NCBI RefSeq assembly: GCF_003002875.1
Contig: NZ_PVTH01000016.1
Location: 1-47,499 of the forward strand
DNA length: 47,499 bases
From: Arcticibacter pallidicorallinus
GTDB lineage: Bacteria; Bacteroidota; Bacteroidia; Sphingobacteriales; Sphingobacteriaceae
Direction of reading: 5' to 3'
A model generated the notes under the pieces. The model was given only the letters and a program-made list of their open reading frames with translations, did not search any database and was not told the DNA's origin. Positions 5,137-47,007 of the stretch are shown in pieces. The stretch's first letter is position 1, and each line of letters opens with the position of its first letter. The translations under genes and the position numbers were made by a program.

Positions 5137-5173
5137 CGAAGGTAAAGAGCTACACTGCAACCAGACTGCAGTG
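5137..5173 (-). promoter_or_regulatory. Palindromic promoter of RHS1
   Basis: Reading toward the gene: CACTGCA, spacer GTCTGGT, TGCAGTG (perfect 7-bp arms, 5153-5173), then TAGCTCTT and a -7 box TACCTTCG (5137-5144). The TCTG in the spacer lies 17 bp before the -7 box and fits a Bacteroidota -33 element. The RHS1 ATG is 15 bp further on. The same layout recurs at eight other places in this window. Confidence 0.8.
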
Positions 5174-5307
5174 AACGAAAAATTTGAAAAAATCCATAAA
5201 AATCAGAGATCACCATGAATTTAAACTATCGAAAAGGGTAAAAAACACACGGTCGAATTTCGTTGTCCTTGCTGCTTCCGGACTTAGTCTATGCTTCCAA
5301 TTGCCCC

Positions 5308-6372
5308 TTACTTAACCTTTCTGGCCTCCAGCCTCTCAATCCGCTTACTCTGTTCAATAATATGCAATGTTAACTCTTCAATTTTTTGTAACAACTTGCC
5401 ATTCATCTCTCCAATATCAAGCCCGTTAGCAGACACTTCCTTCGCTGAGGGTATACCAGGTAGATGCTTGTTCATTTTTATAAATCGCTCTATTGCCGTG
5501 AGCTCTTCAAGTTCGTAGGTTGATTCAAACACATAATCCGGCCAATTACCTTGGAGCTTCACTTTGATTGATTCAGCAATGACACCTCCCGCAACAGCAA
5601 GCTTGGAACCCCTAGAGTCGAGCGTACCGATGCACACACTTCCGTCACTTTTTATTCTCAATTTCTCCGTCAAATCAGATTGAATTCCGCCGATCGAGGT
5701 GTAAAACGCAAGGTCCATAGATTGCACCAAAGCATTATTATTTTGATGATTATTAACACGTTCAGCACGTATCCGGGCACCTATTTGATCAGGGACCACA
5801 TCCCGCCACGTATGAAAGTCAATGTTATATCCCCCTGGTGACGATCCTAGTGGGACATTCTTGTTACCTGCCGAAGCTGATCCTATACGAATGGATGATG
5901 ACCCGTCAAGAGGAGCCCCTATGTGTAACTTCCCAGCAGGATTGGTAACGCCAATTCCAACATTCCCAGTAATAGCTGCTTTGCTGGATACCAAAATAAC
6001 ATCTCCATTTGATTTAAAGCTCAACGGTGCAAGGTAATCAGAACTCCGATCTGCATAAAACTCCAATGAAGATTCCCCTACTGTGTTGTTGGAAAAATAT
6101 CCATCTTTTCGATGGCTGATATGCCAGGTATGAGGCTGATTTAAATTAAAAACAGGTCTTGTATTGACTGTAAACAAAAGATCATTTACAACATTCTGCT
6201 CTCCATCACCTTTGATCGTTATACCCCTACGGGAATTTCCTGTATTGACTTCCAGTAAATCCGTCGGCGAAGTCGTACCTATACCGACATTCCCAGATGA
6301 TTGTATCTGATTTGTTTGTGCAGAAAGTTTGGATGTCAACACTACAACCAATAATATAATTAGATTTTTCAT
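5308..6372 (-). CDS. Secreted fibre-like protein, conserved EELTLY C-terminal module (T1)
   Basis: 354 residues with a signal peptide (about 1-18, SKLSAQ). The body has two GNVGIG(T/V)-type repeats, the sort seen in phage-tail-like and surface fibre proteins, and a third degenerate one (GSVCIGT). A central block from 'GKLHIGAPLDGSSSIRIG' to 'LTEKLRIKSDG' is closely shared with the gene at 37623-38591, but the N-termini of the two differ. The last ~80 residues are the family module, subtype C: KLAVAGGVIAESIKV, WPDYVF, HLPGIPSAKEV, GEMNGKLLQKIEELTLH and a coiled coil. It stands alone between its own promoter (6415-6451) and the RHS1 promoter. No enzymatic residues are recognisable; a structural or adhesive surface role is inferred. 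Confidence 0.85.
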   Translation of the reverse strand: MKNLIILLVVVLTSKLSAQTNQIQSSGNVGIGTTSPTDLLEVNTGNSRRGITIKGDGEQNVVNDLLFTVNTRPVFNLNQPHTWHISHRKDGYFSNNTVGESSLEFYADRSSDYLAPLSFKSNGDVILVSSKAAITGNVGIGVTNPAGKLHIGAPLDGSSSIRIGSASAGNKNVPLGSSPGGYNIDFHTWRDVVPDQIGARIRAERVNNHQNNNALVQSMDLAFYTSIGGIQSDLTEKLRIKSDGSVCIGTLDSRGSKLAVAGGVIAESIKVKLQGNWPDYVFESTYELEELTAIERFIKMNKHLPGIPSAKEVSANGLDIGEMNGKLLQKIEELTLHIIEQSKRIERLEARKVK

Positions 6373-6414
6373 CTTGTTGTTCTATGGGTATGTTAGGCTT
6401 ACGCCACCTAAAAA

Positions 6415-6451
6415 TAAATATACAAGCACCCACTGCAATCAAAATGCAGTA
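6415..6451 (-). promoter_or_regulatory. Palindromic promoter of T1
   Basis: In gene direction: TACTGCA, spacer TTTTGAT, TGCAGTG, then 8 bp (GGTGCTTG) and -7 box TATATTTA. Here the spacer contains a perfect TTTG, 17 bp from the -7 box, which supports reading the spacer as the -33 element. The start codon of T1 is 42 bp past the -7 box. Confidence 0.75.
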
Positions 6452-6583
6452 AGCATATTTCTCGCTAATAAGACCTTTAAACCTCGACCTGTGACCGAAG
6501 GTATCTTATGGACGACTTTAGAGTCGTTGTCCACTGTAGCAATCTTTTCTATCAGCTGGCAATTTAAACGACCAACATCATCG
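6439..6583 (-). pseudogene. Possible transposase remnant (IS110-like?)
   Basis: One minus frame is open for about 47 codons without a start: 'QLIEKIATVDNDSKVVHKIPS', then a VTGRGLKVLLA segment. A charged helix followed by 'IPSVTG.G' and a hydrophobic stretch resembles the 'SIPGIG..TA' region of IS110/IS116-type transposases. The resemblance is weak and the frame runs into the T1 promoter palindrome, where it stops. It may be chance. The wider 6.37-6.88 kb gap holds only this, a fibre-module scar and a 39-codon ORF. Confidence 0.22.
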
Positions 6584-6598
6584 TTCAGTTATATCACT

Positions 6599-6733
6599 TT
6601 AAAGATATTCAAGTTGATTCAATCGATTCTTAAGCCCATTTATCTTCTCGTTCTGAGCCCTTTCACCATCTTTTCACCATCCGGTAAAGAAGTGTCGTAT
6701 ACCCCCCGGCTTGAACACATAGTCAGCAAGTTA
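6599..6733 (-). pseudogene. Scar of a fibre-like C-terminal module
   Basis: On the minus strand a 'ADYVFKP'-coding stretch at about 6708-6726 is followed, in another frame after a deletion, by 'ERAQNEKINGLKNRLNQLEYL' and a TAA at 6599-6601. The latter closely resembles the coiled-coil end of the family member at 44.1 kb (DQNEKIKRLESRLNQL). The HLPE and EELTLY parts are missing. It appears to be an internally deleted remnant of another fibre-like gene between RHS3 and T1. Confidence 0.5.
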
Positions 6734-6754
6734 CCCGTCTGCTCTCATGCCACG

Positions 6755-6874
6755 TCAAGTCACCTGCTCTGCTCCCGTAGCTGCATCCGAGTGGACACGG
6801 ATATATTCATCAGCATACGTTACCGTTCGGATGTAACCGTCAACATCATCGGTTGTCGTTTTAAAGTTTTGCAT
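6755..6874 (-). CDS. Small 39-codon ORF directly downstream of RHS3
   Basis: ATG at 6874, 6 nt after the RHS3 stop, and TGA at 6755-6757. The product starts MQNFKTTTDDVDGYIRTVTY. I do not recognise it. Its position suits translational coupling to RHS3, but it may be only the start of a longer gene whose remainder was replaced by the fibre-module scar that follows. Confidence 0.3.
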   Translation of the reverse strand: MQNFKTTTDDVDGYIRTVTYADEYIRVHSDAATGAEQVT

Positions 6875-6880
6875 AGATCG

Positions 6881-9967: not shown

Positions 9968-9993
9968 GGTCTTCGGTTTACTAAAGATCAGGG

Positions 9994-10030
9994 CCAAGAT
10001 ACTGCGCTCCACTGCAACCAGAATGCAGTA
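9994..10030 (-). promoter_or_regulatory. Palindromic promoter of RHS3
   Basis: In gene direction: TACTGCA, spacer TTCTGGT, TGCAGTG, 8 bp (GAGCGCAG), -7 box TATCTTGG. The spacing is identical to the other sites. The TTG start proposed for RHS3 lies 27 bp after the -7 box. Confidence 0.75.
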
Positions 10031-14841: not shown

Positions 14842-15987
14842 TCAAAAACTATTACTCATCTGAAACATCGGCAAATACATAGCAATCAACACCAGACCAA
14901 CCACCAGTCCCAAAAAAATGATAATCAACGGTTCAAGCAGGCTACTAATCGTTCCAGTCTTATATTCAACCTCCTCCGTATATTGATCCGATATCTTACC
15001 AAAAAAATAATCCAGCCTGTTAACCTCTTCCCCCACTTTAATCAACTGCACCAACTTTGCCGGATAAAAGGGAAACCTAGCCAAACTGTTGTGCAAAGAA
15101 TCACCTCCCATAATTGCTTTTTCAACTTCCTCAAGTGACGTCTCAATCGGATAAAACCCGATCATCTGCCTCACCAAAACGATCGATCGCAACAATGGCG
15201 TGTCCGTACTAACCAGCAACCGCATCGTGTTAGCGAATCGGGCAAGGTAGATCTTACTCACGATGTCTCCTACCAATGGAACTTTAAGAACAAGTGAAGA
15301 AACCCCTCTACGAAACCAAATTTTTTCCTTACTCAATACCAGAAAGACTACGAACCCAACGACTACCATAGCGAACATCAAAAAATAACGATCCAGAAAA
15401 GCTGAGCATCGGATAATAATGGACGTTATCCAGGGAAGCTCTCCACCAAAGCGTTGAAAAACATCAGCGAACATCGGAACGACAAACTTGAGCATGAAGA
15501 AAACCGCTCCCAGCGATGTCATCAGCACAATTAAAGGATAAGTTACCGCACTGATAATCTTGCGCCGCTGACTGATCTTATTCTTAAAGAACCTAGCCAT
15601 ATCAGTAAGAATCTCACCCATCCTACCCGTTTCCTCGCCAATCCGAATACTGTAATATTCGTAATCACTAAACTTTCCAGTTGTATTAAGTGCGCCAGAC
15701 AAGGGCTTTCCTTGCAATACATCCTCCCGAATTCCTTCAAACAAGCTCTTGTCTTTCGCTTTATCTTGATCAACCAAAATCAGATCCAAAGCGGTCCGCA
15801 AATCTATCCCAGAAAGAAGCAGCGTACTTAATTCCATATAAAAGGCCTCTTTCTTTCTATCACTGACCTTAGCTTTTCCAAAGGAAATATCTCTATTCAG
15901 CAGCTCCGAAAGACCTGAGCTCACAGGCTTTGTTTTGGACACTTGCTTCTTTACAACTTTGTAACCGGAAAGATCAATTGGTGGCAT
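14842..15987 (-). CDS. gspF: GspF/PilC-like inner-membrane platform protein
   Basis: 381 residues. Two repeated T2SSF domains are visible: about 45-170 ('FYMELSTLLLSGIDLRTALDLI') and about 245-370 ('FANTMRLLVSTDTPLLRSIVL'). Three hydrophobic segments occur near 145-165, 200-220 and 345-370. Length and domain order fit the polytopic platform that couples the GspE ATPase to pseudopilus assembly. It is the last gene of the secretion operon, 3 bp after the GspJ-like gene, with a hairpin 62 bp downstream. Confidence 0.93.
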   Translation of the reverse strand: MPPIDLSGYKVVKKQVSKTKPVSSGLSELLNRDISFGKAKVSDRKKEAFYMELSTLLLSGIDLRTALDLILVDQDKAKDKSLFEGIREDVLQGKPLSGALNTTGKFSDYEYYSIRIGEETGRMGEILTDMARFFKNKISQRRKIISAVTYPLIVLMTSLGAVFFMLKFVVPMFADVFQRFGGELPWITSIIIRCSAFLDRYFLMFAMVVVGFVVFLVLSKEKIWFRRGVSSLVLKVPLVGDIVSKIYLARFANTMRLLVSTDTPLLRSIVLVRQMIGFYPIETSLEEVEKAIMGGDSLHNSLARFPFYPAKLVQLIKVGEEVNRLDYFFGKISDQYTEEVEYKTGTISSLLEPLIIIFLGLVVGLVLIAMYLPMFQMSNSF

Positions 15988-15990
15988 ATG

Positions 15991-16494
15991 CTAGAGAGGT
16001 TTGATTAACTGTTGTAATTGAATTAGTTCACTAGAACTATAATGCTTACTATAAACCAGAGGAAACTCTTGAGATTTAAGAGTTGCGAAAAAAGCAATAT
16101 GATCGACCGGTCTCCCTTCAGTCGTTGCTTCTTCGTTTTCAAAAAGTGCTCTTAAATCACGATTAGGTATGTAAAAAGTATCCTGGCTTACCTCATACTG
16201 GTCTCTGAGAATATAATCAGCTGTAAATATGTACCTGATACTTCCTTCACTATCTTTGATGTCAATTCCTTCGAAAGTGCTGGATACTAATACCGCCGCC
16301 TGTATATCCTTTTGAAGTAGCTTGTCGACAAGCACAAACGATGCATGCTCTTCATTATCTTTATCAAACCTCCTATAAGATTGCACGATCATAGAAAAAG
16401 CAGTGTAGGTAATCCCAATTGTTATGGCTGCGAGTAACATCGCAATCGTCATTTCAAGAATGGTGTAGGCAGCAACTCGATAACCTGCTCTCAT
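15991..16494 (-). CDS. Minor pseudopilin, GspJ-like
   Basis: 167 residues with a type III (prepilin) signal: a short basic leader ending at an Ala, then YTILEMTIAMLLAAITIGI with Glu at mature position 5 and a hydrophobic helix. The rest is a small globular domain without a recognised motif. It overlaps the GspI-like gene by 4 bp (ATGA) and precedes gspF by 3 bp. Size and order (K-I-J-F on the transcript) suggest GspJ; the exact letter is inferred from gene order. Confidence 0.78.
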   Translation of the reverse strand: MRAGYRVAAYTILEMTIAMLLAAITIGITYTAFSMIVQSYRRFDKDNEEHASFVLVDKLLQKDIQAAVLVSSTFEGIDIKDSEGSIRYIFTADYILRDQYEVSQDTFYIPNRDLRALFENEEATTEGRPVDHIAFFATLKSQEFPLVYSKHYSSSELIQLQQLIKPL

Positions 16495-16847
16495 TGTTCC
16501 TCCCTCCTGACAATTTTCCGCAGTTTACCTATCTTGGTTGTACCTTGGCTGGCTTCTACCTGCAACAACAGCAAATCATCGTACCCTGAATAGAGAACTA
16601 CTATTTTCTCATAATTAATACTGTCTGCTTCTAAAACTTCATCCTCATAGTCTTGATTCCGGATGCTTTGGTCAATAATAGACTCCATCTGCTGATGGGC
16701 CAACGTCCGGCTAACAGAATACCCAGATTGTGTCACCTTAGTAAATATCCCTATTGCCAACGTAAAAACCACCAGTATAATAACCGTAGCTATTACGACC
16801 TCGATCAATGTTGATCCGGAAACTTTTGCAGTAGCTATTTTAGCCAT
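16491..16847 (-). CDS. Minor pseudopilin, GspI-like
   Basis: 118 residues. A short leader ends in 'KVSG' and is followed by STLIEVVIATVIILVVF, with Glu5 and a hydrophobic N-terminal helix. This is the standard prepilin-peptidase substrate signature. It is the shortest pseudopilin here, which fits GspI. It overlaps the GspK-like gene by 13 bp and the GspJ-like gene by 4 bp, so translation is probably coupled. Confidence 0.8.
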   Translation of the reverse strand: MAKIATAKVSGSTLIEVVIATVIILVVFTLAIGIFTKVTQSGYSVSRTLAHQQMESIIDQSIRNQDYEDEVLEADSINYEKIVVLYSGYDDLLLLQVEASQGTTKIGKLRKIVRREEQ

Positions 16848-18073
16848 GTCAACACGCGTTGATTCTTGCTCGTCGAATTGAACAATGAAGATGTAAGATA
16901 ATAAAGGCTGCGCTTGGGTCGGTTAAGTGTAATATCAATCAGGTAGTTCTCATAGAGCGTGCTTGGCGTCTGAATGATAAAGCGATTGCAGGATACCTTT
17001 CCCTCTATTATTACAGGCTTTTCAAATTTGATGAACCCACTTGCATATATCTCGCCCATAACCTTACTATTCTTCCCCAAGCTGATCTGCGTCTGCAGGT
17101 CACTGCGCTCTTCTTCATGAGTAAAAAGAATACCAGAAAGTATACTCCCTTCGCCGAGTGTTATTTTCGGTTGATTGCCACCTTTACCCTTCGAAAGCAC
17201 CCCGATTGCCGAGGGATAATCGAACGACACCGGACCATTCGTTACAACTGAATCAACCGCAAAAAGCTGACAGCTCCCGCGAAATCCATTTTCAACTATA
17301 ATTCCAGGAGCAAAAACCAGGACATTACTCAGCCTTGCCTCTTTTTTAATCGTCAAAACGGTATCACATAGTAACACGATCTTCCCAGAGTAAGAGCCCC
17401 CCACTATCGGATTCTTAGGAGATATCCTGATTTTTTTAACATTACGGAAAAATGAACGGCTAGCAGAATCAGCACTTATCGGATCGCTTTCACTGCTATC
17501 TTGTAAAGTCTCCTGCAACTGGAGGATTAATGTTTTGTTTAATTTAGGTAAGGAGCGTCCGCTCTCACGTAAAGCACCTTTAACAAGCTCCTTACCTTCG
17601 TAGGCTCGGCCGTCAACGTAAGCTTGCCTAATCCCAGCTTTAGGAAGTTCTGCAACACCTACGATTTGCGTCTTTCCACTCACAGAAAGGGGTCTGTCTT
17701 CATCAGCGAGATAAATAGCTGACTTGTCTCCGGACGCATCCAGCCCTATTAAAAACGATTGGCTTAACGTGTCTTTTTGTGAAAATGCACTAACCGTCCC
17801 CAAATCAAAAAGTCCCCAATGCTCTTTCCGCAAAAGAACGCTATCATTTTCCTCTTCAAACAAATCCAATCTGTCTTCCTGATCATATAACTGATAGTTC
17901 GATGATAATAGAAGTGCCCGTCCAGACTCAAGATTAACCGACAACTTCGCGTATCGCAAACTTTTTTGATGTTCTTGCCGATAAAAAGCAGCTACCGTAA
18001 TCAGTGAGGCACAAAACACCGCAATAATTAACGCAATCACGACTACCAGATATAATGCAGACGCTTTTAGCAT
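16835..18073 (-). CDS. Large minor pseudopilin, GspK/PilX-like
   Basis: 412 residues. The N-terminus, MLKASALYLVVVIALIIAVF, is a pilin-like hydrophobic helix with no Glu at position 5, as in GspK, the tip pseudopilin. The body has tandem hydrophobic beta-rich segments ('KIVLLCDTVLTIKKEARLSNVLVF', 'ILFTHEE', 'VMGEIYASGFIKFEKPVIIEGKVSC') that look like a small beta-helix, unlike classical GspK. Its start overlaps the stop of the preceding fibre-like gene by 1 bp. The function is assigned from the N-terminus and operon position. Confidence 0.65.
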   Translation of the reverse strand: MLKASALYLVVVIALIIAVFCASLITVAAFYRQEHQKSLRYAKLSVNLESGRALLLSSNYQLYDQEDRLDLFEEENDSVLLRKEHWGLFDLGTVSAFSQKDTLSQSFLIGLDASGDKSAIYLADEDRPLSVSGKTQIVGVAELPKAGIRQAYVDGRAYEGKELVKGALRESGRSLPKLNKTLILQLQETLQDSSESDPISADSASRSFFRNVKKIRISPKNPIVGGSYSGKIVLLCDTVLTIKKEARLSNVLVFAPGIIVENGFRGSCQLFAVDSVVTNGPVSFDYPSAIGVLSKGKGGNQPKITLGEGSILSGILFTHEEERSDLQTQISLGKNSKVMGEIYASGFIKFEKPVIIEGKVSCNRFIIQTPSTLYENYLIDITLNRPKRSLYYLTSSLFNSTSKNQRVLTWLK

Positions 18074-18795
18074 TATTTTTTGGACCTTAGCTCGGTTCGC
18101 AATTCTTCAATGTCTTTTTGCTGCTTAATGACATAAAGCGTCAGCTCTTCTATCTTTTGGAGCAGCTTAATATTCATTTCTGAAAGGTTCATTCCCTCGC
18201 TCTCCATCTCCTTCGCCGAAGCTATTTCTGGTAAGTGATTATTCTTTTTGATAAAAGATTCAAGCTCCGGAAGAGGCTTTAGATTGTAATTATCATGAAA
18301 GACGAAGTCAGCACCAGCATTAACCGTTACTTTAACTTCCCTTACAGCTATATTCCCCGCGACGGTGAGCTTATAAGTTGGATTGGATGTTCCAATTCCA
18401 ACATTACCACTCTCTGTTATTCGCATTTGTTCTATGTTAGAAGATGTACTAAAGCTAATTTCCCCTCCAACCCTGTCATTCCCCCTGTGAAAGTTTATTG
18501 CGCTATTTGCCTGTCCATAGAAGCTATGCTCGATGGAAAAACTCTTACTGCCAACTTCGAACTGTGTTCCATGAGCTCTCACACCAACAAACGTACCGGC
18601 GCCTTCGTGATCACCTTCCACTTGTCTTGCGAAAACACTTCCTAATGAACCTCCATTAACAAACGCAGCAACGTCAAGCATAGCCCTCGGCGCGGTTGTT
18701 CCTATCCCTACCGATCCTGTTTGCGGAAAAATATTGCTTTGCGCAAAGCAGCTTATTGATAATAGACAAATTGCTGTAGATATAATTGCTCTCAT
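18073..18795 (-). CDS. Secreted fibre-like protein inside the secretion operon (T2, subtype B)
   Basis: 240 residues with a signal peptide (1-18, ISCFAQ). It has 'GSVGIGTTAPRAMLDV' and 'GNVGIGTSNPTYKLTVAGNI'. The C-terminal module is subtype B: AVREVKVTVNAGADFVF, FIKKNNHLPEIASAKEM, NLSEMNIKLLQKIEELTLYVI and a short coil. The module is almost identical to that of its upstream neighbour while the N-terminal parts differ. It lies between MORN/GspC-side genes and the pseudopilins, so it is made together with the machine. A substrate or a surface-exposed accessory component is possible. Confidence 0.83.
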   Translation of the reverse strand: MRAIISTAICLLSISCFAQSNIFPQTGSVGIGTTAPRAMLDVAAFVNGGSLGSVFARQVEGDHEGAGTFVGVRAHGTQFEVGSKSFSIEHSFYGQANSAINFHRGNDRVGGEISFSTSSNIEQMRITESGNVGIGTSNPTYKLTVAGNIAVREVKVTVNAGADFVFHDNYNLKPLPELESFIKKNNHLPEIASAKEMESEGMNLSEMNIKLLQKIEELTLYVIKQQKDIEELRTELRSKK

Positions 18796-18821
18796 AATAT
18801 TATTTTATGGACTGATCGGTC

Positions 18822-19562
18822 TTATAGTCCGGATTCGAGTATCGTGATTCGCTTCCCTTGTTCTGTTAACTGCTTTTGCTGTTCAATCACATAGAGCGTC
18901 AGTTCCTCAATCTTTTGCAAAAGCTTTATATTCATCTCTGAGAGGTTCATCCCTTCGCGCTCCATCTCTTTTGCGGAAGCGATCTCTGGCAAGTGATTAT
19001 TCGTTTTGATAAAAGATTCAAGCTCCTGGAGTGGCCAAAGGTTATAATCATCATGGAACACAAAATCAGCACCTGCATTGACAGTTACTTTCACCTCCCT
19101 TGCAGCGATGTTGCCTGCTACAGTAAGTTTGGAAGACGTCTCTCTAGTTCCGATGCCTACGTTTCCATCACCTTTGATCCACATCAACTGCGCGAGTTGG
19201 TTATCATTTGAGTAATTATAAAATGCAAAACCTCCAGACCGACCCGGACCTCTGTTTGCTATGAAGTCCGTTTCTCCATCTCCGCCCGTTCTATTCCATC
19301 CCATCAGCAATTGGCCCGAATTAGCCAAAAAACTGAGATTATTACCAGTATAGGCAGGATCCAAATTGGCTGTTTGCCCGCTACTTAAGAACGTACCGAC
19401 AAGATGAAGCTTAGCCCATGGATTATTGTTGCCTATTCCAACGTTCCCGGTATGAGAGAAGTGAATATTTTGAGCAGTAGTAGTCCACTGTCCAAAGGAC
19501 TCTGGATTGAACATCTTAATAAGCAAAAAACTGAGAATCAGAAATGTTAATTTAAGGTTCAT
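18822..19562 (-). CDS. Secreted fibre-like protein inside the secretion operon (T3, subtype B)
   Basis: 246 residues with a signal peptide ending 'PESFGQ'. One 'GNVGIGNNNPWAKLHLVG' repeat and one 'GNVGIGTRETSSKLTVAGNI' lead into a subtype B module (NAGADFVFHDDYNL, HLPEIASAKEM, KLLQKIEELTLYVIEQQ). It is a recent tandem relative of the next gene (18073-18795) in the C-terminal 100 residues. A decayed third copy of the coil lies just upstream at 19577-19684. Confidence 0.83.
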   Translation of the reverse strand: MNLKLTFLILSFLLIKMFNPESFGQWTTTAQNIHFSHTGNVGIGNNNPWAKLHLVGTFLSSGQTANLDPAYTGNNLSFLANSGQLLMGWNRTGGDGETDFIANRGPGRSGGFAFYNYSNDNQLAQLMWIKGDGNVGIGTRETSSKLTVAGNIAAREVKVTVNAGADFVFHDDYNLWPLQELESFIKTNNHLPEIASAKEMEREGMNLSEMNIKLLQKIEELTLYVIEQQKQLTEQGKRITILESGL

Positions 19563-19576
19563 ATTAATGGTTTAGG

Positions 19577-19684
19577 TTATTTATTAGTCAAACTAGTAAT
19601 TCTGGTATCTAAAGTTTGCATTTTGCTTTCAAGATGTATGATATGATATAAAGGGTCAACTCCTCAACCTTTGCAAATGCTTCA
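19577..19684 (-). pseudogene. Scar of a fibre-like C-terminal end
   Basis: Between the MORN-like gene and T3, one minus frame gives 'FAKVEELTLYII' and a second frame then gives 'HLESKMQTLDTRITSLTNK' and a stop at 19577-19579. Together they are the EELTLY helix and coiled-coil end of a family member, joined by a frameshift. The upstream part is gone. It suggests that a third fibre-like gene once lay in this slot of the operon. Confidence 0.6.
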
Positions 19685-20308
19685 TCATTTGTTTCTATTA
19701 AGATCCTGACTATCCTTTCCCCTTTGCAGAAAAAACTTTGGTGGCTTAACGAAACCAATTCTAGGCAACCACTTCTTTTTTGCCGCCACAGCACCATTTC
19801 TATAATACACATCGGTGACACTGTCCTGGCTAACATAGGTCTTAACATTACCATGAAACTTTCCTCCCTTCATTCGCCCGATCTGCTTCACAACACCTGA
19901 ATCATCGTACGTAAAGAACCTCCCATTCTCTTGGCCTTTCCGATAATAAGCAGCTTTTTCCAGAATGCCACTTTCCCGCCAGCTCCGCCAAAGTCCACTC
20001 TTAATTCCTTTCTTGAAATCGCCCTCCTCTTTCAAATTCTTAGTCAGATAAAATGAGGAAAAATGTCCATTTAGCAACCTCCCACTATATCCTCCCTGAG
20101 TATGATATATCTTTCCTGCCTTAAACCAATAGTAAGTTACGTCAGAGTCGATGGTCGGTTCTCTCCTTACAGGCAAAACATATGCTGTTATACTACGATC
20201 CGCTTCTACCGTCGTGACCTTACTCGTTTGTTCCTTCAAAATATCCTGAGCACCCACGCTAAAAAATAAGCCCTGCATTACGCTTATCATACAAACCCAT
20301 CTTCTCAT
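19685..20308 (-). CDS. Secreted MORN-repeat-like protein of the secretion operon
   Basis: 207 residues with a signal peptide (1-20, SVGAQ). From about residue 75 there are repeated 'G..NG.F..Y' units: 'SGRLLNGHFSSFYL', 'GDFKKGIKSGLWRSW', 'KGQENGRFFTYDDSG', 'GGKFHGNVKTY'. These resemble MORN/toxin_15-type repeats common in Bacteroidota envelope proteins. It lies 1 bp after the GspC-like gene and is not a standard type II secretion component. A clade-specific accessory role at the outer membrane is a guess. Confidence 0.65.
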   Translation of the reverse strand: MRRWVCMISVMQGLFFSVGAQDILKEQTSKVTTVEADRSITAYVLPVRREPTIDSDVTYYWFKAGKIYHTQGGYSGRLLNGHFSSFYLTKNLKEEGDFKKGIKSGLWRSWRESGILEKAAYYRKGQENGRFFTYDDSGVVKQIGRMKGGKFHGNVKTYVSQDSVTDVYYRNGAVAAKKKWLPRIGFVKPPKFFLQRGKDSQDLNRNK

Positions 20309-20309
20309 A

Positions 20310-20813
20310 TTATTGCACTTTTAAAAACTTCGTTTTGCCTAAATAAGACACTTTAACCGAATCTCTGTTATTCTTCAAAATCTTCACGCCCCCTGCTTGT
20401 TGGCCCTCAGTAAGCATAAACTCCTTACCCTGAATTGTCATAAGAGCTACAATTCTTTTAAATTCAGGGTTCACAATATACCCGGTGTACTTTATCACAC
20501 TCCAATTCACTTCTGGCTCTGGAGTAGCATAGTTTGACATCGACGTCACCGGTTGATCTGTTGCCTCCGGAACAGCTGGAGGGATTGCCACTTGCATCTG
20601 TCTCCCAGAAAACGGATTTCGGTAGTTCAACGCTAACACGAGTGTGTCTTTCATCCTGTACTCATCCAACGACTCGTAGGTACTTTTCTTCGCGCCCGCT
20701 GCGGTGATAAACGAACTCTCTTCACCAGACGCTTGAAAAATCCGGTAAAAAACGATCCCCCAAACCGCCATGACGGAAACAATCAGCACAATTGTCATCG
20801 TCTTATTCTTCAT
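20310..20813 (-). CDS. GspC/PilP-like bitopic inner-membrane protein
   Basis: 167 residues: one N-terminal transmembrane helix (about 5-25, MTIVLIVSVMAVWGIVFY), a linker and a C-terminal domain with 'YTGYIVNPEFKRIVALMTIQGKEFMLTEGQQAGGVKIL'. That beta-rich part matches the homology region of GspC/PilP proteins, which link the inner-membrane platform to the secretin. Its size and place beside the GspL-, GspM- and secretin-like genes support this. Sequence conservation is weak, so the assignment is provisional. Confidence 0.6.
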   Translation of the reverse strand: MKNKTMTIVLIVSVMAVWGIVFYRIFQASGEESSFITAAGAKKSTYESLDEYRMKDTLVLALNYRNPFSGRQMQVAIPPAVPEATDQPVTSMSNYATPEPEVNWSVIKYTGYIVNPEFKRIVALMTIQGKEFMLTEGQQAGGVKILKNNRDSVKVSYLGKTKFLKVQ

Positions 20814-20816
20814 GTA

Positions 20817-21770
20817 TTATTGAATAGTAAAGCTTCTTAACTCGCTGAAAGCGCCCCAGTTCCCGGCCACATCTGCTGCGCGAACTTTCCAGTACACCAC
20901 CTCTCCGAAAGTACCATCCTTGAAGGAATAATTAGTTTCCTTAAGCGTCATAGGAAACGACGGATTGTAAAGAGTAGTCGTATCACTTCTATACACGTAC
21001 AGTTGATAGCTGCTTGCATCTTCCAAAGCCTTCCATTGCAAGGAAACAGGACTTGCCGCCGATGCACCTTTTGAGGGACCGACTAGAGAAACAATTGAAG
21101 GCGGCGTCTTATCATATCGAATCTCAGAAATGGTTGACCACTTCGAAACAGCAGAATCCTGTTCTGCCCTGACTCGCCATTGATAGGTGTTATCTTTTGA
21201 AAAACGAACTCTTAAATCAAGAGCTGTAGTTGTTTGATCAAAAAACAACACCTTTTCATCTCTGAAATTATTTGTATCTACCTGTAAGCGATAGACTTTA
21301 GCTCCATATAGATTATTCCAGGAGAACTCGGTGTCCGACAAGTTAGTCAGGAGTCCGTTTGAGGGAGCTCTAACTTGCACAACCTGCGAGCCTATATTCG
21401 ACTCATATACGGTCAATCTCTGCGTCGTGTACAAAGTGCTGCTGCTACCATTCTCACCCCGGATGCGCCATTCGTAAATACCAGGATCTAAGGTATAAAT
21501 GAATTTATTGTTAGTTACCAGCGTATCCATAATTAGACGGGATGCATCCGAAAACCCGGGGGTCACGATCTGTACCCGGTAAGAAAGAGCGTCCTCAACT
21601 TCATCCCACCAGAATGTCTGCAGGTAGGTGCTCGTTTGAGTGCTATCTGCTGGCGCATTTATGAAGACCTTCTCATCTTCTATAGAAGGCTCTATAAAGT
21701 CCTTACATGAAACCAGAAACAATAGACCCGCAAAAGGCAATATCTTTAATATCATTCCAAAATCGCTCAT
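20817..21770 (-). CDS. Lipoprotein with three Fn3-like domains
   Basis: 317 residues. 'GLLFLVSC' is a lipobox; Cys22 should be lipidated (start at 21770, or at the internal ATG at 21755). Three similar modules follow, each built on 'F.W..V..A..YR.Q': 'TFWWDEVEDALSYRVQIV', 'FSWNNLYGAKVYRLQVD', 'LQWKALEDASSYQLYVY'. They resemble fibronectin type III domains of surface lipoproteins. It lies in the secretion operon 3 bp before the GspC-like gene. It may be an outer-membrane anchor or a pilotin substitute; no direct evidence distinguishes these. Confidence 0.68.
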   Translation of the reverse strand: MSDFGMILKILPFAGLLFLVSCKDFIEPSIEDEKVFINAPADSTQTSTYLQTFWWDEVEDALSYRVQIVTPGFSDASRLIMDTLVTNNKFIYTLDPGIYEWRIRGENGSSSTLYTTQRLTVYESNIGSQVVQVRAPSNGLLTNLSDTEFSWNNLYGAKVYRLQVDTNNFRDEKVLFFDQTTTALDLRVRFSKDNTYQWRVRAEQDSAVSKWSTISEIRYDKTPPSIVSLVGPSKGASAASPVSLQWKALEDASSYQLYVYRSDTTTLYNPSFPMTLKETNYSFKDGTFGEVVYWKVRAADVAGNWGAFSELRSFTIQ

Positions 21771-21774
21771 CTGC

Positions 21775-22677
21775 TTATTTGTTAGCTTTCAATTCATCCA
21801 CCTCTTTCCTTAGGGCGATCAGATGCAATGTCAACTCCTCGATCTTTTTCAGGAGTTTGACATTTATTTCACCAATGTCTATACCGTTCTTTTTAACCTC
21901 AGCAGCTGATGGGATCTCAGGCAGATGCCCGTGTTTCTGGATAAATTCACCGGTTTCGGCCAGCGGCATTAATCCAAAATTCTCATCAAAAACATAATCA
22001 GGCCAGGAACTTCGCAGGTTTACTTTCACGGATTCCGCCACTATGGATCCCGCCACCGCTAGTTTGTGACCCTTGGTATCGGTAGTGCCAATGCCCAGAC
22101 TGCCTTTGAAGTGACTTGTTCCTTCACCGTTGAAGTAGGCATTAAGGGTATTAGATTCTCCGAAGGAATTGACATAAGAGTCTATGCTAGTCTTCAGACT
22201 ATGAGCCGGCTCGTTTACTTCGTTATACGGTAGCGGGTTCTGGACATTGTCATAAACAATAGGATTTACATCTGTATCTGCGGTATAGTGATAAGTAGTT
22301 CCACCGCCCCTAAGCCAAATTATGATACGAAGTTTGTCGTTGTTAAGTGTTATATCTCTCCAGCCGGCTACAAATTCGCCATAAGCGCAAGTAATATGCG
22401 TGTTAATGAAGTTTGATAGGTGTCCCCACTGAGATGTGTGAAAGATAAATTCAGATAATAGTGTACCTCGCCATGAGCTGTTTTCGTGAACATCTGGACG
22501 TACAATTTTAAGCGTTGTCGGTTCGTTTCTATACCAATTTCCATCCAGCCAGGTGACCGGGTAGTATTTATCAATATCACCGTGAACTGTGATACTTCCC
22601 CTAGTTTGGCTAAACGAATTCATCGTAATCAACGATAAAAACAGCAGAATTACCAAAAAATCCAATCTCATAATCAA
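21775..22677 (-). CDS. Secreted fibre-like protein inside the secretion operon (T4, subtype C)
   Basis: 300 residues with a signal peptide (ending NSFSQ). The N-terminal 190 residues are unique, with aromatic beta-rich sequence and no GNVGIGT repeats until 'GSLGIGTTDTKGHKLAVAGSI'. The module is subtype C: VAESVKVNLRSSWPDYVF, HLPEIPSAAEV, GEINVKLLKKIEELTLHLI. It overlaps the preceding family member by 4 bp (ATGA) and is followed by the Fn3-like lipoprotein. Confidence 0.83.
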   Translation of the reverse strand: MIMRLDFLVILLFLSLITMNSFSQTRGSITVHGDIDKYYPVTWLDGNWYRNEPTTLKIVRPDVHENSSWRGTLLSEFIFHTSQWGHLSNFINTHITCAYGEFVAGWRDITLNNDKLRIIIWLRGGGTTYHYTADTDVNPIVYDNVQNPLPYNEVNEPAHSLKTSIDSYVNSFGESNTLNAYFNGEGTSHFKGSLGIGTTDTKGHKLAVAGSIVAESVKVNLRSSWPDYVFDENFGLMPLAETGEFIQKHGHLPEIPSAAEVKKNGIDIGEINVKLLKKIEELTLHLIALRKEVDELKANK

Positions 22678-23564
22678 GGTTTTATAAGTCGTTCAAGTTC
22701 TCTAATACGGCTTTCCTGCTTCTCTGATCTTTTTTCCTGCTCTATCAGGTATAAGGTCAGTTCTTCAATCTTTTTTAAGAGCAAACCATTCATTTCACCC
22801 AAGCTCAGCCCTTTATCTTCAACTTGTTTGGCTGACGGAATTTCAGGCAAATGCCTATTATCATTGATATAAACTTCAAGGTCTTTTAAAGAAAGTTTCT
22901 CATGAGAGGGTGAGAACACATAATCTGGCCAGTTACTTGCTTCAACTTTTATTTCCTGGGCTCTTATATTCCCATTTACAGATAATTTCTCACTAGGATC
23001 CAACGTACCAAGACCTATATTTCCATTACCTACGTAGAAGGCGATAGACTGCGGGTGCGTGGTCGAGGACCAGATAACATTGTTCTGAGGAGCTTCAGTC
23101 TTCGTTCCGTAGATTTCGTAATCGGCCCCTCTAAACATGAATGTGAATCCTACGTGGGCAGGAGGAGTTTTGATGAAAACCTCATAATATTCCTGTCCCG
23201 GACCATCAGACGACTTCTGAGCATGCCACGTAAAATTATTTGCAGAGTTTCCGCTCATTTGCAGCACAGGCCTTTGCTGTTCAGAAATATGTTGAGGAAA
23301 CGAGAAATCCACATAACTTCCACCCTCTCCATCATAGCTGACAAAGTATACAGTACCGGAAACTCCGCCTTTCTTCCAAAAGCCCATTGCAGGATTGTGA
23401 TTGTAGATTCTAAAGATTTTTATCCACTCCTGCTCAATCGCATGATTGTAATATTCAAGCACCTTAACTTTCGTTGCTTCATTTATTCCCAGGGATGTTT
23501 GCGCTGTTGCAGAAATAGTTATGGCGAAAAAAACTAAGACGAGCAAAAAACCTCTATTTTTCAT
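22674..23564 (-). CDS. Secreted fibre-like protein inside the secretion operon (T5, subtype A)
   Basis: 296 residues with a signal peptide (1-21, SATAQ). A unique N-terminal domain (about 22-180) is followed by 'GNIGLGTLDPSEKLSVNGNI' and a subtype A module: RAQEIKVEASNWPDYVF, HLPEIPSAKQV, LGEMNGLLLKKIEELTLYLIEQ and a 25-residue coil. It begins 6 bp after the GspM-like gene, so it is translated as part of the machine operon. Confidence 0.84.
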   Translation of the reverse strand: MKNRGFLLVLVFFAITISATAQTSLGINEATKVKVLEYYNHAIEQEWIKIFRIYNHNPAMGFWKKGGVSGTVYFVSYDGEGGSYVDFSFPQHISEQQRPVLQMSGNSANNFTWHAQKSSDGPGQEYYEVFIKTPPAHVGFTFMFRGADYEIYGTKTEAPQNNVIWSSTTHPQSIAFYVGNGNIGLGTLDPSEKLSVNGNIRAQEIKVEASNWPDYVFSPSHEKLSLKDLEVYINDNRHLPEIPSAKQVEDKGLSLGEMNGLLLKKIEELTLYLIEQEKRSEKQESRIRELERLIKP

Positions 23565-23570
23565 ATTATA

Positions 23571-25334: not shown

Positions 25335-25354
25335 GTCTTATTGCTATTTATCTA

Positions 25355-27322: not shown

Positions 27323-27335
27323 GCAAATATTCTCC

Positions 27336-29281: not shown

Positions 29282-29703
29282 TAGTCTGGCGTTATTTCCT
29301 TAAGATTCTTATCCTGATCAATCTCCCAAACATTAAACGTTCCATTACCATTAAAGTCTGCTACTGCGGTTGCACGAGCAACAAACGTGTTTGAGCTCGC
29401 CTGCACAATCTCAATTCGGTAATTGGCTCTTCCATCTTTACCGTCTGAACTCAATTTCTCCTGTATAAAACCAAGTTCATTCAGGTCCGTTGTGTACTTT
29501 GACTTCTCAAAAAAGAAGTTCTTTTCCAAGGTATGCATATGCTCTAATTGCAATTTGGCCTCTGTACTTTTGGCTTTTGTTATTAATGGCATCAAATTTG
29601 GTAGTGCGAGCAGCACGAGAATGCCTATAATGACCAATACAATTAGAATTTCGGTTAGTGTGTATGCTTTAAGTCTCTTTTCAAACAATTTTCCCTTTTT
29701 CAT
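29281..29703 (-). CDS. gspG: Major pseudopilin, GspG-like
   Basis: 140 residues. The leader ends 'RLKA' and is followed by YTLTEILIVLVIIGILVLLALP with Glu5, then a helix and a small C-terminal domain with 'YTTDLNELGF' as in GspG/type IV pilins. It is the first gene of the secretion operon and probably its most abundant product. The leader's last residue is Ala rather than Gly. The 233-bp region upstream separates it from the divergent LytTR regulator gene. Confidence 0.9.
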   Translation of the reverse strand: MKKGKLFEKRLKAYTLTEILIVLVIIGILVLLALPNLMPLITKAKSTEAKLQLEHMHTLEKNFFFEKSKYTTDLNELGFIQEKLSSDGKDGRANYRIEIVQASSNTFVARATAVADFNGNGTFNVWEIDQDKNLKEITPD

Positions 29704-29936: not shown

Positions 29937-30713
29937 ATGATTAAATGCTACATCTTTGGAGATGATTCAACCAAGCAGTTGATTAACAATTTCATCCCAA
30001 CTTTATCCCCAATTTTTTACTTGGGATCGTCTTTAGATTTCAGAACAGCATTCAAGGACATCGTCTTAAACAAACCCGATTTTATCTTCGTCGATATTGA
30101 ACGTGTTAATGCTGATCCCTTCGAAATTATCCTATTAAGGCAGATATCGCCAGTGCTGTTTACCACAGGTATAAAGCACGAAGCAGAAGTGCAAAACTCT
30201 AAAAAGGTACTTAAATCACCTGCTGGCGTTCAACCTGAGGTAGTGCAGATGCTTGAAGAAGCGGGAATAGCGCTTTCAGCCAAACGTCCTAACAAAGATG
30301 ATCATCCTACTTACCCGATTACGATAATTATCAAGACAAACTCAAAGGGCTTATACGGCGGAATTGAAGTTCTAATTAAGTTAGATGAAATCATATACGT
30401 CGAATCAGTCAAAAATTATCTGGACATTCATCTAGACGGTAACAGACATCATCGGTCATACATGACTCTCAAAAGCATGGAAAACGAGTTATCTGGTGAC
30501 TTCGAAAGGGTAAATAAATCTTTCATTATCAACCTAAATAAGATCACATCTATAGAAGGAAATGATTTTCTGATCTTAAATTATAATGAAAAAAACCGGA
30601 TTCCGATTGGCCCAACCTACAAGAAACAGTTTGCCGAATGGAAAAAGGGAAAACAATTTAAATCTATAGGAACAGACGATGACTCGATAATTGCTAGTGG
30701 AAAATCTTCCTAA
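29937..30713 (+). CDS. LytTR-type DNA-binding regulator with degenerate receiver-like domain
   Basis: 258 residues. The N-terminal ~115 residues look like a degenerate receiver ('KPDFIFVDIE' at the usual phospho-Asp strand) but lack the full acidic pocket. The C-terminal half (~140-245) is a LytTR domain: 'IIYVESVKNYLDIHL', 'RSYMTLKSMENEL', 'FERVNKSFIINLNKI', 'IPIGPTYKKQFAEW'. It is one of the few plus-strand genes, divergent from the secretion operon and between the machine and the fibre arrays. That makes it a good candidate regulator of either. The stop overlaps the end of the convergent HTH gene by 4 bp. Confidence 0.85.
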   Translation: MIKCYIFGDDSTKQLINNFIPTLSPIFYLGSSLDFRTAFKDIVLNKPDFIFVDIERVNADPFEIILLRQISPVLFTTGIKHEAEVQNSKKVLKSPAGVQPEVVQMLEEAGIALSAKRPNKDDHPTYPITIIIKTNSKGLYGGIEVLIKLDEIIYVESVKNYLDIHLDGNRHHRSYMTLKSMENELSGDFERVNKSFIINLNKITSIEGNDFLILNYNEKNRIPIGPTYKKQFAEWKKGKQFKSIGTDDDSIIASGKSS

Positions 30714-30940
30714 TTTTCGTAGAAACGTAGCTGAAATTGCCCCTTCGTGCCATAATAATAAGTCTGCTTTGATCTTGAATATTTAATCGGCGCTCCCAGC
30801 TCCCGCATTTCACTAAGAAAGCCATAGAGTGTTCTTTCTGAAATATTCAATCGCACAGCAAGTTGATTAGGCGTACCAGTGGACTTATGCCTGATCAAGT
30901 GATCTAGTCTTTCCAGACGGTCTAAAAGCTCAGATAACAT
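30710..30940 (-). CDS. Small winged-helix/HTH protein
   Basis: 76 residues. 'PNQLAVRLNISERTLYGFLSEM' is a helix-turn-helix of the HTH_11/DeoR type, followed by 'GAPIKYSRSKQTYYY', which looks like the wing. There is no effector domain. It converges on the LytTR gene with a 4-bp overlap. It could bind the promoter palindromes as a dimer, but nothing in the sequence shows that. Confidence 0.7.
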   Translation of the reverse strand: MLSELLDRLERLDHLIRHKSTGTPNQLAVRLNISERTLYGFLSEMRELGAPIKYSRSKQTYYYGTKGQFQLRFYEN

Positions 30941-36490: not shown

Positions 36491-36543
36491 CGAAAGTAAA
36501 AATGTACACTGCAACCAGACTGCAGTGTACATTTTTACTTTCG
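36491..36543. promoter_or_regulatory. Divergent palindromic promoter with 23-bp perfect arms
   Basis: Arms 36491-36513 and 36521-36543 are perfect reverse complements around the 7-nt spacer ACCAGAC. The centre is the usual CACTGCA-N7-TGCAGTG. Each arm also contains TACATTTT and the -7 box TACTTTCG, so identical promoter halves fire left (T11 operon) and right (T12). Only the leftward reading has the consensus spacer GTCTGGT with TCTG at -33; the rightward one has CCAG there. The leftward promoter should therefore be stronger. Confidence 0.85.
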
Positions 36544-36568
36544 CATAAACTATAAAACACCATTGATC

Positions 36569-42826: not shown

Positions 42827-42863
42827 CCAATGTATTAAACCACACTGCAACCAGCTTGCAGTA
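42827..42863 (-). promoter_or_regulatory. Palindromic promoter of the five-gene fibre operon
   Basis: In gene direction: TACTGCA, spacer AGCTGGT, TGCAGTG, 8 bp (TGGTTTAA), -7 box TACATTGG. Spacing is identical to the other sites. It separates T19 from the T18-T14 operon, and I see no terminator between T19 and this promoter. Confidence 0.78.
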
Positions 42864-43863: not shown

Positions 43864-43900
43864 CTAATTTAAAAACCCTCACTGCAACCACACTGCAGTG
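43864..43900 (-). promoter_or_regulatory. Palindromic promoter of T19
   Basis: In gene direction: CACTGCA, spacer GTGTGGT, TGCAGTG (7-bp perfect arms), 8 bp (AGGGTTTT), -7 box TAAATTAG. The -7 box is weaker than at other sites, but spacing is unchanged. Confidence 0.72.
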
Positions 43901-44845: not shown

Positions 44846-44873
44846 ATAGTTTCAAAGCGATAGGTCAAAACGT

Positions 44874-45791: not shown

Positions 45792-45815
45792 AGTGCTAAA
45801 AAATCTAGTTGAGAA

Positions 45816-45852
45816 CAAAGATAAAACGCTCCACTGCAGCCAGACTGCAGTA
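45816..45852 (-). promoter_or_regulatory. Palindromic promoter of T21-T20
   Basis: In gene direction: TACTGCA, spacer GTCTGGC, TGCAGTG, 8 bp (GAGCGTTT), -7 box TATCTTTG, a perfect TAnnTTTG. This is the best -7 box of the set and fixes the register for the others. The T21 ATG is 24 bp further on. Confidence 0.82.
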
Positions 45853-45863
45853 TGTCAGTTAAG

Positions 45864-46769
45864 CTACAGCTCGTCTCTACTCTCAATTTTTGTTACGCGC
45901 GCCTTCAGTTGCTCATTCTCTTTCTTCATATCAATCATATAAAGCGTTAGCTCTTCAATCTTTTTCAGCAACTTTATATTCATCTCACTAAGGTTCACCC
46001 CCTCCTTTTCCATTTCCATCGCAGAAGCGATCTCGGGAAGACGTTGATTTTGTTTTATAAAGGCTTCCAGCTCCGAGAGGGGCTGCAGGGGATATCCTTC
46101 TTTAAAAACATAATCCGCTCCGGCGTCAACCGAGACCCTGACTTCCCGGGACTGAATGTTACCGGCCACAGTAAGTTTCGCTGTCGGATTAATTGTCCCT
46201 ATACCTACACTGCCTCCCGGTGTAATTGTAAATTCGTTAGAGTAAAATCCACGTATATCAGCAGGAACAATATTGATGTAATCAAGATAAAGATCTGTTA
46301 TCCCTGGAGTAAAGTTAACCCCCCTAATTTCGATATTATCAACGTTCTCCGCAATAACAACAGGGATACTTATAATTTCCCATTCCTGCTGATTTCTGAA
46401 CATAGTCGGCTTCAAGTTAATCGAGTTTGAGATGAGCCCACCACTGAAACTTACAATATCAAGAATGCAGAGAGAATTTGATGATTGATTAGATGACACC
46501 TTCATTCGAAATTGCACAACGTAGTTGCCGGCTTGATATTTAATGTACGGGCCAAACCATACAGTTTCCCCTGGCGAATTAGCTGGCCGAAGTACAGCTT
46601 TCCCGCCATCGGCAGTTTGGTCATCGACAAGGGAACTCCCGGCAGTTAGATGTAATTTACTTTCATCAAGCTTTTGACCTACGGGGTTAACCTGCGCGAT
46701 TGCAGAGAAACCAAATAGCAGCACGAAGACCAGTATTGACCTGACAATAATTTCTAATCTTTTTTCCAT
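45864..46769 (-). CDS. Secreted fibre-like protein (T22, subtype B)
   Basis: 301 residues with signal peptide to 'FSAIAQ'. The N-terminal domain (~27-190) has 'GNYVVQFRMKVSS' and 'LYLDYINIVP', suggesting a carbohydrate-binding-like jelly roll, though I cannot name it. 'GSVGIGTINPTAKLTVAGNI' leads to a subtype B module: QSREVRVSVDAGADYVF, QRLPEIASAMEM, SEMNIKLLKKIEELTLYMI. The palindromic promoter is 77 bp upstream, and the T21 promoter begins 11 bp past its stop. Confidence 0.84.
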   Translation of the reverse strand: MEKRLEIIVRSILVFVLLFGFSAIAQVNPVGQKLDESKLHLTAGSSLVDDQTADGGKAVLRPANSPGETVWFGPYIKYQAGNYVVQFRMKVSSNQSSNSLCILDIVSFSGGLISNSINLKPTMFRNQQEWEIISIPVVIAENVDNIEIRGVNFTPGITDLYLDYINIVPADIRGFYSNEFTITPGGSVGIGTINPTAKLTVAGNIQSREVRVSVDAGADYVFKEGYPLQPLSELEAFIKQNQRLPEIASAMEMEKEGVNLSEMNIKLLKKIEELTLYMIDMKKENEQLKARVTKIESRDEL

Positions 46770-46846
46770 TTTTTTTTTGATATGCTAAAACCGCTCCTCG
46801 ATTACCCTACTTAGGTACCTCTGTATAAGAAGCCATTATTAATTGC

Positions 46847-46883
46847 CGAAGATATATTTCCAAACTGCAGCCAGAATGCAGTC
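46847..46883 (-). promoter_or_regulatory. Palindromic promoter of T22
   Basis: In gene direction: GACTGCA, spacer TTCTGGC, TGCAGTT, 8 bp (TGGAAATA), -7 box TATCTTCG. Core arms ACTGCA/TGCAGT are perfect. It is back to back with the plus-strand site at 46971. Confidence 0.78.
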
Positions 46884-46970
46884 TCATTCTTGTGAAACTT
46901 TTTTTCTTCCTATCTATTCAAATCGAAATATATCACTTGCTAACACTCGGCTTATCCTAAAATGAAACTA

Positions 46971-47007
46971 CACTGCAATCTAATTGCAGTAAGAATCACG
47001 TACTTCG
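46971..47007 (+). promoter_or_regulatory. Palindromic promoter of the truncated right-edge gene
   Basis: On the plus strand: CACTGCA, spacer ATCTAAT, TGCAGTA, 8 bp, then GTACTTCG. TTCG is in the usual register, but the TA of the -7 box is shifted by one base. It is the least canonical of the nine sites. The ATG follows 31 bp later. Confidence 0.65.

What the first reader, a model, noticed from the sequence alone, without database searches (positions are those of the whole stretch)
5137..47007. A repeated palindromic promoter class: ACTGCA-N7-TGCAGT, 8 bp, TAnnTTnG
Nine sites (5153, 6431, 10010, 36507, 42843, 43880, 45832, 46863, 46971) share perfect ACTGCA/TGCAGT arms and a fixed 8-bp distance from the 7-bp right arm to a TAnnTTTG-like -7 box. 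One site serves two divergent promoters. Read in gene direction, the 7-nt spacer tends to nTCTGGT, and its TCTG/TTTG lies 17 bp before the -7 box. The arms therefore appear to embrace the -33 element, as an operator would. Every site heads an RHS or fibre-like transcription unit; I found none before the secretion operon or the regulators. The sequence facts are direct; the regulator and the sign of control are unknown.
Basis: partly seen in the sequence, partly recalled or inferred. Interest (0 to 1): 0.9.

Follow-up and report, generated by a model that had tools for sequence, protein, structure and literature searches.

The report
Operator set for secreted RHS/fibre genes
A bacterium marks the promoters of many of its surface-fibre and RHS genes with one exact DNA palindrome, and a tiny regulator gene in the same secretion cluster is probably the protein that reads it; a similar regulator-plus-palindrome layout recurs, with changed letters, beside secretion systems in related bacteria.

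Summary
The 4.1-Mb genome has 12: ten precede RHS or fibre genes, one an unclassified ORF, one looks like a terminator. Eight of nine window sites have TAnnTT exactly 9 bp after the arm on the gene side, so the dyad spans about -40 to -22 around the -33 element. The unnamed regulator is probably a 76-aa stand-alone HTH_11 protein at 30713-30940 (-). In 399 family genomes the seven best HTH matches (cut set afterwards) all carry ACTGC-N9-GCAGT-N9-TAnnTT, against 12 of 392 others, close to the control rate. The nearby LytTR protein tracks the motif less well. Relatives keep the geometry but change the arms: Pedobacter nutrimenti has 12 AGTGC..GCACT sites; the 10 inspected precede RHS, fibre or secretion genes. 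Other HTH relatives follow type I exporter genes, with such a promoter before double-glycine-like peptides, though many HTH loci show no clear dyad. I read this as a family of cargo-promoter regulators embedded in secretion loci. Binding and sign of control are inferred; rigid spacing favours activation. No structure was obtained (service busy).

The parts
5154..5172 (-). Operator 1, before DUF6443/RHS gene 1742-5122; -7 box TACCTTCG at 5137-5144
6432..6450 (-). Operator 2, before fibre gene 5308-6372; box TATATTTA at 6415-6422
10011..10029 (-). Operator 3, before RHS-like gene 6881-10012; box TATCTTGG at 9994-10001. The annotated GTG start lies upstream of the box, so the true start is probably further in
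36508..36526 (.). Operator 4, bidirectional, between fibre genes 35512-36468 (-) and 36563-37543 (+); box TACTTTCG on both sides
42844..42862 (-). Operator 5, before the fibre gene run that starts with 41871-42785; box TACATTGG at 42827-42834
43881..43899 (-). Operator 6, before fibre gene 42908-43822; box TAAATTAG at 43864-43871; a second TAnnTT on the other side has no gene behind it
45833..45851 (-). Operator 7, before fibre gene 44874-45818 (ATG probably at 45791); box TATCTTTG at 45816-45823
46864..46882 (-). Operator 8, before fibre gene 45864-46769; box TATCTTCG at 46847-46854
46972..46990 (+). Operator 9, before the unclassified secreted-looking ORF 47039-47437; GTACTTCG at 47000-47007 (box one base off)
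30710..30940 (-). Stand-alone HTH_11 protein, 76 aa: proposed reader of the operators; overlaps the end of the LytTR gene by 4 bp
   Evidence: (29.1 bits, cut-off 25)
29937..30713 (+). LytTR-domain regulator, divergent from the secretion operon: rival binder
14842..29703 (-). Secretion operon of the type called T2SS in Bacteroidetes (T2SSF, secretin, T2SSE ATPase, prepilin peptidase-like, pilin-like genes); no operator before it

Best explanation
Each palindrome is the binding site of a dimer of a small winged-helix protein (HTH_11 family, 76 aa, encoded at 30713-30940). The dyad is centred about 31 bp before the transcription start, with one half-site on each side of the -33 element, and thereby ties the promoters of the secretion locus's likely cargo (RHS proteins and fibre proteins) into one regulon spread over at least three contigs. 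Shown: the sites, their spacing, their genes, the HTH gene, its co-occurrence with the motif, and changed arms with kept geometry in relatives. Inferred: that this HTH protein binds the sites, that it is a dimer, that the downstream proteins are cargo of the secretion system, and the sign of control. I judge activation more likely (about 0.6) than repression (about 0.4): the dyad-to-box distance is almost invariant even where the arms have changed, as expected when regulator and RNA polymerase must touch, whereas repressor sites can usually move. Half-site centres 13 bp apart leave the -33 groove on roughly the opposite face, so sigma and regulator could sit there together.
For: (1) Perfect 12-bp arms, 12 in the genome against 0 control. 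(2) TAnnTT at exactly 9 bp in 8 of 9 window sites and 9 of the 12 genome sites, the genome sites having been found by arms alone. (3) Downstream genes: of the 27 physical sites of the wider motif that I could inspect in the seven HTH-A genomes, 26 precede a homologue of a window RHS, fibre or secretion-operon gene (one of them as second gene, G055; one only at 24% identity, G076 C297); in G066 only 8 sites could be inspected, the search having counted 14 matches. (4) HTH profile in 399 family genomes: the seven best (115-142 bits; next is 94.7) all have the wider motif, against 12 of 392 others, Fisher p = 1.7e-10; the cut was set after seeing the scores. The 12 others have 1-2 matches each; the backwards control hits 7 genomes once each. 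(5) Inside the genus, G020 and G041 lack both; four others have both. (6) The motif lies just downstream of the HTH gene in G055, G066, G268 and, with a less regular box, G076. (7) Arms change with geometry kept: AGTGC-N9-GCACT-N9-TAnnTT occurs 12 times in G364 (identical at the HTH locus to Pedobacter nutrimenti), 3 times in G220, twice in G050, all with a related HTH beside the secretion genes; 10 of the 12 G364 sites were inspected and all 10 precede RHS/fibre/secretion homologues. (8) Downstream of 68 related HTH genes a perfect 5-bp-arm dyad stands at the same place in 11, against 0-1 at most other offsets.
Against: No binding or expression data. With a loose HTH cut (143 genomes) the association is weak (12 of 143 against 7 of 256, p = 0.012): the link rests on the close HTH clade. 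LytTR also co-occurs with the motif in most of the seven genomes. In one search a second peak appears at offset +8 (4 of 68, and 17 of 68 at the looser threshold); it comes from subfamily C sites, where a second overlapping dyad exists, so the true dyad there is ambiguous. 43 of 68 HTH loci show no dyad at the looser threshold. Single AGTGC hits in 10 genomes equal the control (10 genomes). The HTH gene itself, the RHS gene 11016-14492 and the secretion operon have no site in the window. Many loci were fetched with a pattern that demanded the 9-bp spacing, so the 68 matches at 9 bp are not an independent count.
Confidence: 0.72

Rival explanations
1. The LytTR-domain regulator at 29937-30713 reads the palindrome.
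For: It lies in the island, and homologues lie beside RHS loci in G041, G055, G066 and G076. Matches above 90 bits occur in six of the seven motif genomes if searches are taken together.
Against: G041 has the closest homologue (52% identity, 204-211 bits) but no motif and no HTH match. G001 has the motif, but only LytTR matches below 60 bits, as do G364, G220 and G050 with the altered arms. From recalled knowledge, LytTR domains usually bind direct repeats about two turns apart, not an inverted repeat with 13 bp between half-site centres.
Confidence: 0.1
2. The HTH protein is the binder but is a repressor: the dimer covers the -33 element and blocks RNA polymerase.
For: The dyad overlaps the core promoter; TnTG at -33 to -30 is fairly well kept (T 26, T 24 and G 20 of 31 A-type promoters), as if the promoter could work unaided; the upstream flank in the window is AT-rich (70% against 57%).
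Against: Spacing to the box is nearly invariant and the same offset appears with changed arms. No site lies before the HTH gene in the window, so there is no sign of autoregulation.
Confidence: 0.33
3. A different, unidentified regulator or special sigma factor reads the site.
For: Co-occurrence is correlation; other shared regulators were not searched for systematically.
Against: The HTH gene is next to the site in several genomes, and arms differ between HTH groups while the geometry stays. The box is the ordinary TAnnTTTG type, which argues against a special sigma.
Confidence: 0.15
4. The palindromes are RNA hairpins (terminators) or recombination sites, not operators.
For: C3:377846, L255:10317 and window 14755 are terminator-like hairpins with TGCAG-type arms; C14:6418 also looks like one. 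Short inverted repeats around an asymmetric core recall recombinase sites.
Against: Most window sites have no arm extension or T-run and stand before genes with a fixed box. The 7-bp spacers differ between sites, which a crossover region would not allow.
Confidence: 0.04

Closest known systems
HTH_11 (Pfam PF08279) winged-helix domain
   Same: Window protein scores 29.1 bits against a cut-off of 25; 4 of 7 relatives tested pass, 3 fall below
   Different: From recalled knowledge the domain usually comes joined to a ligand or enzyme domain; here it is a 76-aa protein on its own
So-called T2SS of Bacteroidetes (Cytophaga hutchinsonii; PMC5553014, PMC6668835, passages seen)
   Same: Secretin, T2SSE ATPase, T2SSF and pilin-like genes; PMC6668835 says it groups with type IVa pili and may be a novel secretion system
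   Different: The passages I saw describe no dedicated regulator or operator
Bacteroidetes LexA-like SOS regulators (PMC8565304, passages)
   Same: Palindromic operators in Bacteroidetes whose arms diverge between regulator groups
   Different: Motifs GGA-N5-TCC and CTAA-N5-TTAG and DNA-repair genes; ours has another sequence, another spacing and secretion-locus genes
Lambda cII at PRE (recalled, not tested)
   Same: Two half-sites flank the -35 region, so regulator and sigma can share the promoter on opposite faces
   Different: cII reads direct repeats and is not an HTH_11 protein; here the half-sites are inverted
LytTR response regulators (AgrA type, recalled)
   Same: One is encoded in the island
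   Different: Does not track the motif as well as the HTH protein; site form differs

Membership tests
HTH_11 (PF08279) | Score at or above Pfam's gathering cut-off | tested here: met
   29.1 bits against 25 for the window protein
HTH_11 (PF08279) | Winged-helix fold | not tested
Bacteroidetes sigma-A promoter | TAnnTTTG-type -7 box | tested here: met
   TAnnTT at 9 bp in 8 of 9 window sites; the last two letters vary
Bacteroidetes sigma-A promoter | Transcription starts at the expected distance | not testable with these tools
   No transcript data; the -12 to -5 position of the box is taken from Flavobacterium psychrophilum (PMC9723704 passage)
Bacteroidetes SOS box | GGA-N5-TCC or CTAA-N5-TTAG | tested here: not met
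   Arms and spacing differ
LytTR operator | Motif present where the LytTR homologue is | tested here: not met
   G041 has the regulator and no motif; G001 the motif and no LytTR match above 60 bits
T2SS-like system of Bacteroidetes | Secretin, T2SSE, T2SSF and pilin genes in one cluster | tested here: met
T2SS-like system of Bacteroidetes | RHS/fibre proteins are its cargo | not testable with these tools
   Gene neighbourhood only

The most novel reading that the evidence does not exclude
A phylum-wide family of tiny stand-alone HTH_11 proteins is built into the loci of unrelated secretion machines (the T4aP-like 'T2SS' and type I ABC exporters). Each reads a 19-bp dyad fixed at about -31 of the promoters of that machine's own cargo (RHS/fibre proteins, or double-glycine peptides). 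Arms diverge between systems, geometry does not, so the operator alone could list the cargo of each machine.
Probability: 0.5. Interest if true: 0.85.

Novelty: new variant of a known kind. Interest (0 to 1): 0.72.

Why it matters
The 'T2SS' of Bacteroidetes has been suggested to be a separate secretion system derived from type IV pili (PMC6668835, passage). If the operator marks its regulon, a DNA pattern search gives a list of candidate cargo and the gene to delete to test it. The system is also a small natural series for studying how a regulator and its operator change together: same promoter geometry, different arms in related species. My literature searches (open-access library only, listings and passages) showed no report of this operator or HTH protein; subscription papers were not searched.

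Tried and rejected
LytTR as binder: tested by co-occurrence, downgraded, not excluded outright; six of seven motif genomes also have a LytTR match above 90 bits. Degenerate sites in the genome: with up to 3 mismatches over arms and box there are 61 strand-specific matches (28 + 33) against 17 controls (8 + 9), and the 3-mismatch class looks mostly like chance; no set of weaker operators emerged. SOS box: rejected by sequence. Terminators: accepted for C3:377846, L255:10317 and window 14755. L255 (G188) first looked like a further HTH-motif pair but is a hairpin with a T-run, so I dropped it as evidence. Recombination sites: rejected because the spacers differ. The AGTGC pattern as a general marker: 13 of 399 genomes, of which the 10 single-hit genomes equal the control (10 genomes), so only the three multi-site genomes (G364, G220, G050) count; a Fisher test on eight hand-picked HTH genomes was post hoc and I do not rely on it. 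Mantel test of HTH distance against arm distance: r = 0.27, 5 of 2000 permutations; relatedness confounds it. Within the genus alone, 4 of 4 against 0 of 2 is not significant (p = 0.067). Held-out HTH loci from other families of the phylum: perfect dyad at the expected offset in 3 of 19 (other offsets 0-1), looser in 6 of 19 (others 0-4); 13 of 19 show none. PDB sequence search and NCBIfam gave only weak matches, among them the HTH part of AcpB/EbpR/MafR regulators in 5 of 15 members.
Full report
Observation. The nine sites are real and perfect. The window is contig C16 of a 4,116,409-base genome of 23 contigs; relatives found with its pilin include Sphingobacterium, Pedobacter, Mucilaginibacter, Pararcticibacter and Hufsiella, so I take the family to be Sphingobacteriaceae (inference). 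Genome-wide there are 12 perfect sites and none of the backwards control. Of the three outside the window, C8:9692 and C14:6418 lie before RHS-like genes, and C3:377846 lies between convergent genes with long arms and T-runs, as a bidirectional terminator would. C14:6418 is also hairpin-like, so its role is less certain.

Anatomy. Read towards the gene the order is ACTGCA, spacer nTnTGGy, TGCAGT, nine bases, TAnnTT. With the box placed at -12 to -5, as mapped in Flavobacterium psychrophilum (PMC9723704, passage), the dyad runs from about -40 to -22 and TnTG lies at -33 to -30. In 31 A-type promoters gathered from the loci, T stands at -33 in 26, T at -31 in 24 and G at -30 in 20; the mirror position of -33 is G in 16 and A in 14, so this element follows the promoter direction rather than the dyad. 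Eight of nine window sites and nine of the 12 genome sites have TAnnTT at exactly nine bases on at least one side; 46972 is off by one, C8 has TAATAT and C3 has none. The 25 bases upstream are AT-rich in the window promoters (70% against 57%).

Genes. Sites head one DUF6443/RHS gene, one RHS-like gene and fibre genes that share a C-terminal domain (my reading of the translations; no Pfam family). One site, 46972, heads a 132-aa secreted-looking ORF that I could not assign. The island also holds a T2SS-like operon and a LytTR regulator.

The regulator. Reading the neighbourhoods of motif sites in relatives showed a small HTH protein just before several of them, and tblastn found its counterpart in the window at 30713-30940. 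It is 76 aa, passes Pfam HTH_11 and overlaps the LytTR gene end by 4 bp. In 399 family genomes I searched the wider motif and an HTH profile. The seven best HTH genomes (115-142 bits, next 94.7) all have the motif (11, 14, 4, 1, 3, 2 and 1 matches in G000, G066, G076, G055, G001, G011 and G268); 12 of the other 392 do, with 1-2 each, close to the backwards control (7 genomes). Fisher p = 1.7e-10 with a cut chosen after seeing the scores; at the tool's loose cut (143 genomes) it is 12 of 143 against 7 of 256, p = 0.012. LytTR fits less well: G041 has it at 52% identity without motif or HTH, and G001 has the motif with only weak LytTR matches. But six of the seven motif genomes do have a LytTR match above 90 bits, so the case against it rests on few genomes.

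Changed arms, same geometry. In the 600 bases after 68 related HTH genes, a palindrome of the right gap and distance occurs in 19; the peaks at other gaps lie on the same centre, and off-centre combinations reach at most 8. With at least 6 of 7 pairs the expected centre gives 14 of 68, other offsets 0-2; with perfect five-base arms 11 of 68, other offsets 0-1 except 4 at +8, which comes from a second overlapping dyad in subfamily C. Arms seen include ACTGC, AGTGC, ACTAC, ACTCC (imperfect), AATGC and AGTCC. The AGTGC form has 12 matches in G364, 3 in G220 and 2 in G050; singles in 10 other genomes equal the control. All 10 G364 sites that I could inspect precede homologues of window RHS, fibre or secretion-operon genes.

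Place in secretion loci. The HTH gene follows a homologue of the window's T2SSF gene in 8 of the 55 loci with a same-strand upstream ORF listed, and another gene of that operon in four. Of seven other upstream proteins scanned, five are type I exporter parts (two ABC transporters, two outer-membrane efflux proteins, one HlyD protein) and two have no family. In 15 of 16 selected loci of that group short ORFs with a double-glycine-like leader follow (by eye). Outside the family, 19 HTH loci served as a held-out check: the dyad is at the expected place in 3 (perfect) or 6 (looser), and other offsets give 0-1 and 0-4; two of them (L356, L357) have the very arms ACTGCA..TGCAGT. This is modest support, with 13 of 19 showing nothing.

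Mechanism. I propose that a dimer of the HTH protein sits on the two arms, which flank the -33 element. Strict spacing favours activation in the manner of a regulator that shares the promoter with sigma (recalled parallel: lambda cII), but a repressor that covers the -33 element is not excluded. What sets the activity of so small a protein is unknown; its own level or a partner protein are the simplest options (inference).

Novelty. Regulator-operator pairs are a known kind. New, as far as my searches go, are this operator, its stand-alone HTH_11 candidate, and the repeated placing of such pairs in secretion loci.

Noticed in passing
L274, L281, L292, L297, L299, L300, L307 and others, just after the HTH gene: HTH relatives behind type I exporter genes are followed by a promoter-like dyad and by short ORFs with double-glycine-like leaders (15 of 16 loci looked at, by eye).
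   Followed up: partly
L356, L357 (another family of the phylum): HTH relatives with exactly ACTGCA-N7-TGCAGT-N9-TAnnTT 10 bases after the gene.
   Followed up: partly
window 14755-14773: Terminator-like hairpin with CCTGCA..TGCAGG core between the secretion operon and an RHS gene.
   Followed up: partly
L053 9937-10755, L162, L163 10234-10998, L164 3266-4069, L165 6538-7248, L168 10594-11307: LytTR proteins related to the window's recur beside RHS loci, whether or not the palindrome is present.
   Followed up: partly
window 31090-31653 and 44096-44554: Fibre-type ORFs without a usual signal-bearing start or an operator; they look truncated at the 5' end.
   Followed up: no
subfamily C sites such as L274, about 15 bases after the HTH gene: Two overlapping dyads, one on the usual centre and one 8 bases further (TTTTG..CAAAA); which one is read is unclear.
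   Followed up: partly
upstream of G364 operators, about -55 to -46: A-rich stretch in most AGTGC promoters, like an UP element.
   Followed up: no
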